A stretch of 33,326 nt of DNA from an uncultured OCS116 cluster bacterium (lineage in GTDB: Bacteria; Pseudomonadota; Alphaproteobacteria; Rhizobiales; TMED25), in the NCBI GenBank assembly GCA_902632055.1, contig CACPAS010000013.1, positions 1 to 33,326 of the forward strand. Reading direction: 5' to 3'. The notes below the pieces were generated by a model, which saw nothing but the letters and a program-made list of their open reading frames with translations, made no database searches and had not been told where the DNA came from. A program made the translations under genes and the position numbers. Below, in pieces: positions 11,437 through 24,789 of the stretch. Each line of letters starts with the position of its first letter. Within the stretch, counting starts at the first letter, position 1.

Positions 11437-12813
11437 ATGAAAAATAATACAGAACAAAATTCACAAATCCCGACAGAATTGGATTTAGTTAATTATTTCC
11501 ACTCGGGTTCAAAGTCACCCGAAGATTATAGTATCGGCACAGAAAACGAAAAATTTTTATTCCACAATGCGTCATTGAGTCCGCTTCAATACTCAGAAAG
11601 ATCAGGCATAGTTGATGTTTTTGAGATACTTATTAATCAGTTTCAGTGGAGTCCTATATTTGATGGTGATAATATCATTGGTTTATCTGATGCTAAAAAT
11701 GACAGAAATATTACTCTGGAGCCTGGTGGCCAAATAGAATTATCAGGAGCAAAATGCTCAAACTTACATCAAACCAACGAAGAATTTATTCGATATCATT
11801 CTCAAATTAGTTATATTTGTAATGAGCTTAATATCGGAGCTCTTGGTCTTGGATTTTGTCCAAACTGGGGCTTTAATGATATGGCTAAGGTTCCAAAGAC
11901 AAGATATACAATTATGCGCAAATACATGCCAAAAGTTGGTAATCTTGGCTTGGATATGATGCATTGTTCCGCAACAACTCAGGTTAATCTCGATTATAGT
12001 GATGAAAATGATTATTCGAAAAAGTTTCGTGTTGCAATGGCCCTCCAACCACTCATATCGGTTATGTTTTTTAATAGCCCATTCCTAAATGGGAAACTGA
12101 CAGGATTATTATCTAATAGGCTTCGAGTTTGGGCAGATACTGATAGTGATAGATGCGGCTATTTACCATTCGCTTTCGGCGATTCAAGTAAATTTGATGA
12201 TTACGCTCAGTATGCTCTCGATGTACCTATGTACTTTATTTACAGAAATGGTAATTATGTTGTGCCGAACCATATCTCCTTCAGGAATTTCTTATCCAAT
12301 GGCTTTATTGATAGCGACGGTGAAAAGTTTTCGGCAACGATGAATGATTGGGAGACTCATTTATCGACACTGTTTCCTCAGGTAAGACTGAAGAAATTTC
12401 TTGAAATGCGAGGTGCTGACTCTGGCAACCATAATTCAATTCTCAGCCTAGCAGCGATTTGGACGGGATTAATTTATAATATTCAAGTGCTTGACGAAGT
12501 ACACAAAATGATCTCAAAATGGACATATTCAGATGTGTTGCATCTGGATGAGTGTTTAAACAAAGATGGTCTGAATGCGAGCTTCAAGGGCAATAACGTA
12601 CTTGAGCTCCTCAAAGAGCTTGTATCTCTATCAAAGCAGGGTTTATCTGAGAGGAATGTTAGAAATGCGCATAATGATACAGAAGAGATTTATTTAGAGC
12701 CACTATTTGAGGTCCTTACAAAAAAAAGAACACCATCAGATGAGTTAATAAGTGAATTCGATCACGAATGGTCAAATAAAATAAATCCAATATATAATAA
12801 GCATTATTTATAG
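11437..12813 (+). CDS. gshA: Glutamate--cysteine ligase (GCS2 family, plant/alphaproteobacterial type)
   Basis: 458 aa; IGTENEKFLF, ITLEPGGQIELSGA, MHCSATTQVNLDYSDE, EMRGADSG. Confidence 0.93.
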   Translation: MKNNTEQNSQIPTELDLVNYFHSGSKSPEDYSIGTENEKFLFHNASLSPLQYSERSGIVDVFEILINQFQWSPIFDGDNIIGLSDAKNDRNITLEPGGQIELSGAKCSNLHQTNEEFIRYHSQISYICNELNIGALGLGFCPNWGFNDMAKVPKTRYTIMRKYMPKVGNLGLDMMHCSATTQVNLDYSDENDYSKKFRVAMALQPLISVMFFNSPFLNGKLTGLLSNRLRVWADTDSDRCGYLPFAFGDSSKFDDYAQYALDVPMYFIYRNGNYVVPNHISFRNFLSNGFIDSDGEKFSATMNDWETHLSTLFPQVRLKKFLEMRGADSGNHNSILSLAAIWTGLIYNIQVLDEVHKMISKWTYSDVLHLDECLNKDGLNASFKGNNVLELLKELVSLSKQGLSERNVRNAHNDTEEIYLEPLFEVLTKKRTPSDELISEFDHEWSNKINPIYNKHYL

Positions 12814-12825
12814 GGGGTAATTAAA

Positions 12826-14004
12826 ATTAAAAAATATCAACCTTCTATTTGGTCTTTGGCTGCTGTAACTGGGCTTGCCCCTCTAACATTGAATCTAATT
12901 GTTCCATCGTTACCTGCTCTAGCAGATCATTTCGGAATAACTTATTCAAGTGCGCAAGTTGCTGTATCATCTTTCATAATATCAATGGCTATCGGTCAGA
13001 TTTTTATCGGTCCAATTTCAGACGCTTACGGAAGAAGGTCGATATTGATGCTGGGGATTATTATTTTTTTGATTGGGACAACAATATGCAGTATTGCATC
13101 GTCAAGTGAATTACTTTTTGTTGGACGTTTTATTCAGGCATTCGGCGGAGTTGCAGGAGTCGTTCTTGGGCGAGCTATTATTCGAGATGTATACAGCCGT
13201 GAAAAAGCTGCAAGCGCACTAGGTTATGTGACCACTGTTATGGTTATAGCACCCATGATAGCACCCCCACTAGGAGGTGTACTACAAGACTTATTTGGAT
13301 GGAGGAGTATTTTTTATCTAATGATGATTGTGGGTATAATCCTTTTTTTGAATATATTTTACAATCTTCAAGAAACAAAAACGGAAGATCGTATTAAGGG
13401 AGACATTAGATCTCTGTTAAACAGTTTTGGTCAATTACTAAAATTACCTCAATTCATCCTTTATACAATTACAATGTCGTGCGCAAACTCGATGTTTTTT
13501 ACTTTTCTTGGTGTCGCACCACTCCTTGTTATTCAGAGATTAGAGTATTCGCCAACCCAATATGGTTTCACATTTATGGTAATATCATTTGCATTTATGG
13601 CAGGTAGTTTTACAACTGCAAGGCTATCAGAAAGGATCGGTTCCCTGAGAATGATTGGTTATGCTGTCTTTGGTACCATAACTGGTTCGGTACTCATGTT
13701 GATCATATTCTTAAGCGGCATCATTAATATATATATCATATTTGGAACAATGATGATTATCACATACTCTAATGGAATTGTAATGCCTAATATTATTGCA
13801 AATATTATTAGCATAAAACCCCAATTAGCAGGAGCTGCATCCGGCTTATCTGGCTGCATTCAATACTCAATAGCGGGTATATCTTCATACGTGGCAGCTG
13901 TGCTCGCCAGTATTGGGCTTATTTTTATGCCACTACAACTTTTTTTGCTGGCCTTTGTTGGGACAATCACCTTCTATCTTGCTGAAGCAATTAGGGGTAA
14001 CTAG
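12826..14004 (+). CDS. MFS drug resistance transporter, Bcr/CflA family
   Basis: 12 TM protein; LAPLTLNLIVPSLPALADHF and GPISDAYGRRSILMLGIIIF are Bcr/CflA signatures. Start placed at ATT 12826 (in-frame with the TTG 12856 ORF) because 12856 would cut into TM1 and there is no ATG/GTG/TTG between the gshA TAG stop (12811) and 12856. Start uncertain. Confidence 0.88.
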   Translation: MKKYQPSIWSLAAVTGLAPLTLNLIVPSLPALADHFGITYSSAQVAVSSFIISMAIGQIFIGPISDAYGRRSILMLGIIIFLIGTTICSIASSSELLFVGRFIQAFGGVAGVVLGRAIIRDVYSREKAASALGYVTTVMVIAPMIAPPLGGVLQDLFGWRSIFYLMMIVGIILFLNIFYNLQETKTEDRIKGDIRSLLNSFGQLLKLPQFILYTITMSCANSMFFTFLGVAPLLVIQRLEYSPTQYGFTFMVISFAFMAGSFTTARLSERIGSLRMIGYAVFGTITGSVLMLIIFLSGIINIYIIFGTMMIITYSNGIVMPNIIANIISIKPQLAGAASGLSGCIQYSIAGISSYVAAVLASIGLIFMPLQLFLLAFVGTITFYLAEAIRGN

Positions 14005-24216: not shown

Positions 24217-24789
24217 ATTTTTAAAGACGCAAGAAATAATATACGTTCCGAAGATATAATTCTTCGATATCCGAGATTGGCTAATTATAAAAAGTGGAAA
24301 ACTATTAGGGAGTCTAGTAAAGATTTTCTTACTCCTTGGGAACCGACGTGGTATCCGGGAGAGCATAGTCTAAAGAGATATCTCAAACTTCTGAAAATAT
24401 ATTCTCAAAAAAGAAAAAATCATACGCAACTATCATACTTTATTTTCAATGGGGGTAATGAGCTACTTGGGGGTATAAATGTCTTTAATATAAAAAAAGG
24501 TATATCTCAAAGTTGTACAATTGGTTACTGGATAGGAGAGGCATATTCAAATCAAGGTTATATGACAAAATCACTTTTAATATTACTGGATTACCTATTC
24601 AATGATTTTAATTTTAACCGAGTTGAGGCTGCGTGTGTACCAAACAATATTGCATCCAAGAGTCTTCTCAAAAGGCTGGGGTTTGATGAGGAGGGGTATG
24701 CGAAAGATTATTTACGAATAAATGGAAGATGGGAAGACCATATTCTATTTTCATTAAGGAAAAAGACGTTTCATGCTCAACATAAATAG
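24217..24789 (+). CDS. GNAT family N-acetyltransferase (RimJ/RimL-like)
   Basis: ILRYPRLANYKKWKTIRESSKDFLTPWEPTW; IGYWIGEAYSNQGYMTKSL; RVEAACVPNNIASKSLLKRLGFDEEGYAKDYLRINGRWEDHILFSL. Start placed at ATT 24217; the listed TTG 24277 would remove part of the first strand. Start uncertain (see findings). Confidence 0.88.
   Translation: MFKDARNNIRSEDIILRYPRLANYKKWKTIRESSKDFLTPWEPTWYPGEHSLKRYLKLLKIYSQKRKNHTQLSYFIFNGGNELLGGINVFNIKKGISQSCTIGYWIGEAYSNQGYMTKSLLILLDYLFNDFNFNRVEAACVPNNIASKSLLKRLGFDEEGYAKDYLRINGRWEDHILFSLRKKTFHAQHK

What the first reader, a model, noticed from the sequence alone, without database searches (positions are those of the whole stretch)
12811..12860. MFS transporter gene appears to use an ATT start codon (or stop-codon readthrough from gshA)
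Seen: gshA ends with TAG at 12811-12813; the same frame then reads GGG GTA ATT AAA ATT AAA AAA TAT CAA CCT TCT ATT TGG TCT TTG. No ATG, GTG or TTG exists before TTG 12856. Bcr/CflA proteins normally carry a short basic N-tail before TM1, as in xKKYQPSIWSLAAVTGLAPLTLN; starting at 12856 removes it and trims TM1. AGGGGG (12812-12817) sits 8 nt before ATT 12826, a good SD spacing. I saw no ATG in any plus-strand frame between the gshA 3' end and this region. AUU initiation is established for infC and pcnB in E. coli, where IF3 discriminates against it.
Basis: partly seen in the sequence, partly recalled or inferred. Interest (0 to 1): 0.6.

Follow-up and report, generated by a model that had tools for sequence, protein, structure and literature searches.

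The report
Transporter gene starting at AUU codon
In a genus of uncultured ocean bacteria, a membrane-transporter gene begins at the rare start codon AUU instead of AUG, the AUU is kept in all 12 sequenced relatives, and several other genes of these bacteria seem to use similar odd start codons, which probably keeps protein output low and which standard gene finders miss.

Summary
The window comes from an OCS116-clade marine alphaproteobacterium. The Bcr/CflA transporter frame behind gshA has no ATG/GTG/TTG before TTG 12856. Twelve same-genus genomes show that the start is ATT 12826. The aligned codon is ATT in 12/12, and it is the only one of 33 invariant isoleucine codons in the protein that is ATT throughout. 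In nine genomes a Shine-Dalgarno sequence sits 5-8 nt upstream. Codons after ATT show protein-level constraint; codons before it do not. In two relatives TTG 12856 is TTA or CTA, and no canonical codon lies in frame between the upstream stop and an ATG 53 codons downstream. Readthrough from gshA is rejected (the stop-to-ATT gap is 10-30 nt and changes frame), and so is a one-genome sequencing error. Three relatives carry an ATG four codons upstream, and the sister genus has ATG. infC in the same family starts at ATA. A two-genome screen of 1,049 orthologue pairs finds about seven more genes (uvrA, trmL, argE and others) without a usable canonical start, each with ATT/ATC/ATA at the expected position. 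AUU starts that limit expression are known (infC, pcnB, staphylococcal cvfC1). This is a new, well-supported member; its effect on expression is inferred.

The parts
11437..12813 (+). gshA, glutamate--cysteine ligase; stop TAG 12811-12813
   Evidence: TIGR01436 above cut-off; gshA-transporter order also kept in the sister genus
12812..12817 (+). Shine-Dalgarno sequence AGGGGG, overlapping the gshA stop, 8 nt before ATT 12826
   Evidence: Predicted pairing to the anti-Shine-Dalgarno sequence -10.7 kcal/mol; -5.6 to -7.8 at the same place in the 8 other genomes without an ATG at codon -4
12826..12828 (+). ATT start codon of the transporter gene
   Evidence: ATT in 12/12 genomes; only invariant-Ile column of 33 that is ATT throughout
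12829..12855 (+). N-terminal codons (KKYQPSIWS) between ATT and the first canonical codon, under protein-level selection
   Evidence: Codons 5-9 after ATT: 40 synonymous against 6 amino-acid-changing codon differences; six codons before ATT: 6 against 109
12856..12858 (+). TTG that standard gene callers would take as start; not the start
   Evidence: TTA in G009 and CTA in G002; next canonical codon there is ATG 53 codons after ATT
12826..14004 (+). Bcr/CflA-family MFS transporter, 392 codons plus stop
   Evidence: TIGR00710 263.8 bits, cut-off 200.9; Pfam MFS_1; EmrD and MdfA are the nearest solved structures by sequence

Best explanation
The transporter gene is translated from AUU 12826. The 30S subunit is placed by the AGGGGG/GAGG-type Shine-Dalgarno sequence at the end of gshA, and initiator fMet-tRNA (anticodon CAU) reads AUU with a third-position mismatch, so the protein begins with methionine followed by KKYQPSIW. 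Shown here: the position, the conservation, the Shine-Dalgarno spacing and the lack of any other conserved start. Inferred from the known behaviour of AUU starts: initiation is weak and subject to IF3 rejection, so the gene makes a small, IF3-sensitive amount of transporter downstream of the better-translated gshA. infC in the same genomes starts at AUA, which fits IF3 autoregulation and would link the two.
For: ATT at the aligned column in 12/12 same-genus genomes. It is the only one of 33 invariant Ile columns that is ATT in all. Shine-Dalgarno-like GAGG/AAGG/GGGG lies 5-8 nt upstream in the 9 genomes without an ATG at codon -4, pairing -5.6 to -10.7 kcal/mol, against -3.1 in the 3 genomes with that ATG. 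Coding constraint begins at or just after ATT. In G009 and G002 no canonical codon lies in frame from the upstream stop to an ATG 53 codons downstream. The region around ATT is unpaired in the predicted RNA fold. infC starts with ATA after a GGAG-type sequence in all 14 family genomes. Precedent with conserved AUU plus strong Shine-Dalgarno pairing: cvfC1 in S. aureus, about 10% of the AUG output in poor medium (PMC13009471).
Against: No expression, ribosome-profiling or protein data. Three genomes (G011, G006, G003) have an in-frame ATG four codons upstream, and G001 has one five codons upstream overlapping the gshA stop; the AUU may be internal there. The 12 genomes are relatives, not independent events. 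Weak initiation and IF3 control are carried over from other bacteria.
Confidence: 0.9

Rival explanations
1. Translation starts at TTG 12856 and the upstream codons are untranslated; ATT is chance.
For: TTG is a usual bacterial start and present in 10 of 12 genomes; about 51 of 852 orthologue pairs with a shared start column use TTG.
Against: The column is TTA in G009 and CTA in G002 with no replacement. Codons between ATT and TTG evolve as protein (40 synonymous, 6 amino-acid-changing differences in codons 5-9). A start here would cut into the first membrane segment.
Confidence: 0.03
2. Ribosomes read through the gshA stop (or shift frame near it) and make a gshA-transporter fusion, possibly processed.
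For: In the window the two genes are in the same frame with only 12 nt between stop and ATT.
Against: The gap is 10, 11, 12, 13, 15 or 30 nt in relatives and the stop codon itself varies; codons between stop and ATT show no protein-level constraint.
Confidence: 0.02
3. A sequence error in the window (homopolymer G5 or A6) hides an ATG/GTG.
For: The window is from a draft genome, 77% complete.
Against: Separately assembled relatives show the same ATT without an ATG.
Confidence: 0.01
4. Non-AUG initiation at another nearby codon, for example ATT 12820 in the window, ATA at codon -5 in some relatives, or the second ATT in G008.
For: Such codons exist locally.
Against: None is conserved; ATA at -5 lies before the Shine-Dalgarno sequence and ATT 12820 is only 2 nt after it.
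Confidence: 0.04

Closest known systems
infC (IF3) and pcnB of E. coli, AUU starts
   Same: Non-canonical AUU start with a Shine-Dalgarno sequence; infC of this very family starts at AUA
   Different: Those encode IF3 and poly(A) polymerase; here a transporter behind gshA in an alphaproteobacterium; IF3 control untested
cvfC1 (AUU), ccpN, citZ and infC (AUA) of Staphylococcus aureus (PMC13009471)
   Same: cvfC1 and ccpN are conserved non-canonical starts with strong Shine-Dalgarno pairing
   Different: Experimental proof by profiling and reporters there; here comparative proof only, in another phylum and another gene
Fixed non-canonical starts in Listeria monocytogenes (six conserved genes, incl. 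infC ATT and rnhC ATC; PMC13068326)
   Same: A small fixed set of genes per genome with non-canonical starts
   Different: 6 of 2265 conserved genes there; about 9 candidates here, 8 of them from 1049 orthologue pairs plus the transporter

Membership tests
Genes initiated at AUU (infC/pcnB/cvfC1 type) | No ATG/GTG/TTG in frame that could give the complete protein | tested here: met
   The window and six relatives have none upstream, and G008 only a TTG 25 codons upstream inside gshA; G009 and G002 have none until codon 53. G001, G011, G006 and G003 do have an upstream ATG
Genes initiated at AUU (infC/pcnB/cvfC1 type) | Start codon conserved as AUU beyond what amino-acid conservation demands | tested here: met
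   12/12 ATT; 1 of 33 invariant Ile columns
Genes initiated at AUU (infC/pcnB/cvfC1 type) | Shine-Dalgarno sequence at working distance | tested here: met
   9/9 genomes without an ATG at codon -4; weak in the 3 with that ATG
Genes initiated at AUU (infC/pcnB/cvfC1 type) | Initiation at the codon seen in vivo, with lower output than AUG | not testable with these tools
   Needs reporters or profiling
Genes initiated at AUU (infC/pcnB/cvfC1 type) | Discrimination by IF3 | not testable with these tools
   Only indirect: infC is present and itself starts at ATA
Bcr/CflA family efflux MFS transporters | Profile score above curated cut-off over the full length | tested here: met
   TIGR00710 263.8 against 200.9 bits, profile positions 6-383 of 385
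Stop-codon readthrough genes | Frame kept between the two reading frames across relatives | tested here: not met
   Gap 10-30 nt, not always a multiple of three

The most novel reading that the evidence does not exclude
The genus uses AUU/AUC/AUA as working start codons in roughly 1% of its genes (infC, uvrA, trmL, an adenosyltransferase, argE, an NAD-dependent epimerase, ybaK-like, bolA-like, this transporter), forming a set whose translation moves together with IF3 level: a streamlined marine lineage in which such initiation is an ordinary tuning device and is systematically mis-annotated.
Probability: 0.35. Interest if true: 0.7.

Novelty: new member of a known kind. Interest (0 to 1): 0.5.

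Why it matters
It gives comparative evidence, not just a plausible codon, for a conserved AUU start outside the few textbook cases, in a transporter of an ocean bacterium. It shows that gene callers restricted to ATG/GTG/TTG would truncate real proteins here (uvrA in G001 would lose at least its first 60 codons). It also offers a short list of genes on which IF3-dependent start-codon discrimination could be tested as a shared control.

Tried and rejected
Readthrough or frameshift from gshA: gap length and stop vary. TTG 12856: not conserved. Sequence error: repeated in separate assemblies. RNA structure as control: no unusual fold around the start (z = 0.65) and no Rfam match in the window. 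Variant initiator tRNA as a special cause: the anticodon stem is AU/GC/GC instead of three GC pairs, but the same stem is in 49 of 61 genomes including most of the order and the all-GC form in none, so it is at most permissive. An overall enrichment test of Shine-Dalgarno sites at shared ATH codons was not decisive (0.029 against 0.011 for other codons in genes lacking a shared canonical start, only 3 ATH cases). AlphaFold with 11 sequences gave mean pLDDT 52, too poor to place membrane segment 1. The PDB search with IF3 only confirmed the family. Literature in the held library gave no report of non-canonical starts in OCS116.

Full report
WHAT IS THERE. The window is contig C13 of a 1.03-Mb, 77%-complete genome. 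Its relatives are named OCS116 cluster / Rhodobiaceae in the public records. At 11437-12813 lies gshA (TIGR01436) and directly behind it a Bcr/CflA transporter frame (TIGR00710). There is no ATG, GTG or TTG in the transporter frame between the gshA stop and TTG 12856.

CONSERVATION OF THE CODON. The orthologous locus was compared in 12 genomes of the genus. The codon aligned to 12826 is ATT in all 12. To separate codon from amino-acid conservation, I listed all 33 columns of the protein that are isoleucine in every genome: 32 of them vary among ATT, ATC and ATA, and only the putative start is ATT throughout. Shared ancestry acts on all 33 columns alike, so it does not explain the difference.

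WHERE CODING CONSTRAINT BEGINS. Between seven diverged representatives, the six codons before ATT give 6 synonymous and 109 amino-acid-changing codon differences. Codons 5-9 after ATT give 40 and 6. Translation therefore begins upstream of TTG 12856 and not far upstream of 12826. In the DNA alignment ATTA stands as a block of four invariant columns.

RIBOSOME BINDING SITE. In the nine genomes that lack an ATG four codons upstream, a GAGG, AAGG or GGGG element pairs with the anti-Shine-Dalgarno sequence at -5.6 to -10.7 kcal/mol, 5-8 nt before ATT. In the three genomes with such an ATG (G011, G006, G003) the pairing is only -3.1. The predicted RNA fold leaves ATT unpaired and is no stronger than in shuffled sequences.

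ALTERNATIVES. TTG 12856 is TTA in G009 and CTA in G002. In these two genomes the frame holds no canonical codon from the upstream stop to an ATG 53 codons downstream, a start that would remove the first membrane segment and more. The gap from the gshA stop to ATT is 10, 11, 12, 13, 15 or 30 nt and the stop codon changes, so conserved readthrough is excluded. An error in the window is excluded by the other assemblies. G001 alone has an ATG overlapping the gshA stop; its nearest relatives have ATA there.

EVOLUTION. The sister genus (G012, G013) keeps the gshA-transporter order and has an in-frame ATG two codons further upstream. The simplest inference is a change from ATG to ATT in the ancestor of this genus, with a new upstream ATG in one subclade.

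THE SAME KIND OF START ELSEWHERE IN THE GENUS. infC starts at ATA behind a GGAG-type sequence in all 14 family genomes, a positive control. I pieced together G001 (1.32 Mb) and G008 (1.25 Mb) from fetched stretches and compared 1,049 orthologue pairs. The screen recovered infC and the known prfB frameshift. It also found genes with no usable canonical start in one or both genomes and ATT, ATC or ATA at the expected position in both: uvrA (ATC/ATA), trmL (ATT/ATT), a cob(I)alamin adenosyltransferase (ATC/ATA), argE (ATA/ATC), an NAD-dependent epimerase-like gene (ATA/ATC), ybaK-like (ATC/ATT) and bolA-like (ATT/ATT; G001 also has TTG two codons upstream). Protein searches in all 14 genomes found most of these genes, with the frame opening right at the start residue in several (family names). 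These cases rest on two genomes at DNA level and are weaker than the transporter. Any one column is ATT/ATC/ATA in both genomes with a frequency of about 9%. The formal Shine-Dalgarno enrichment test had too few cases.

MECHANISM. Shown: position, conservation and binding site. Inferred: fMet-tRNA reads AUU with a third-base mismatch, IF3 lowers the rate, and the gene is kept low. In S. aureus, AUU and AUA starts gave about 10% of the AUG output in poor medium (PMC13009471). The initiator tRNA here has an AU/GC/GC anticodon stem; a review ties the three GC pairs to initiation fidelity (PMC7949028). But this form is usual across the order, so it does not explain the genus.

NOVELTY. Non-canonical starts of this sort are a known kind (infC and pcnB of E. 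coli, from established knowledge; cvfC1 and ccpN in PMC13009471; six genes in Listeria, PMC13068326). I found no report for this transporter or clade in the held library. It is a new member of a known kind, with an unproven hint of wider use.

Noticed in passing
window 24217-24789 (+): GNAT acetyltransferase (PF13302) with no ATG/GTG/TTG before TTG 24277, which would remove the conserved N-terminus SEDIILRYPR; ATT 24217 or ATA 24241 are candidate starts. G001 has an ATG and G008 a TTG near this place, so the start is not conserved.
   Followed up: partly
L058-L071 (infC loci of 14 genomes): infC begins with ATA behind GGAG-type sequences across both genera of the family.
   Followed up: partly
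G001:C5 and G008:C21 (uvrA): uvrA has no canonical codon near its N-terminus in either genome; ATC/ATA stand at the expected start.
   Followed up: partly
G001:C4:112909-112985 (+) and G008:C1:17027-17103 (-): Initiator tRNA anticodon stem is AU/GC/GC instead of three GC pairs; the same in most genomes of the order.
   Followed up: yes
G001:C1:469045-469843 (+) and G008:C2:207300-208125 (+): Another orthologue pair (CSIQRIITIPKTDIKKEPSHSSETI) without a canonical start near the conserved N-terminus; gene not identified.
   Followed up: no
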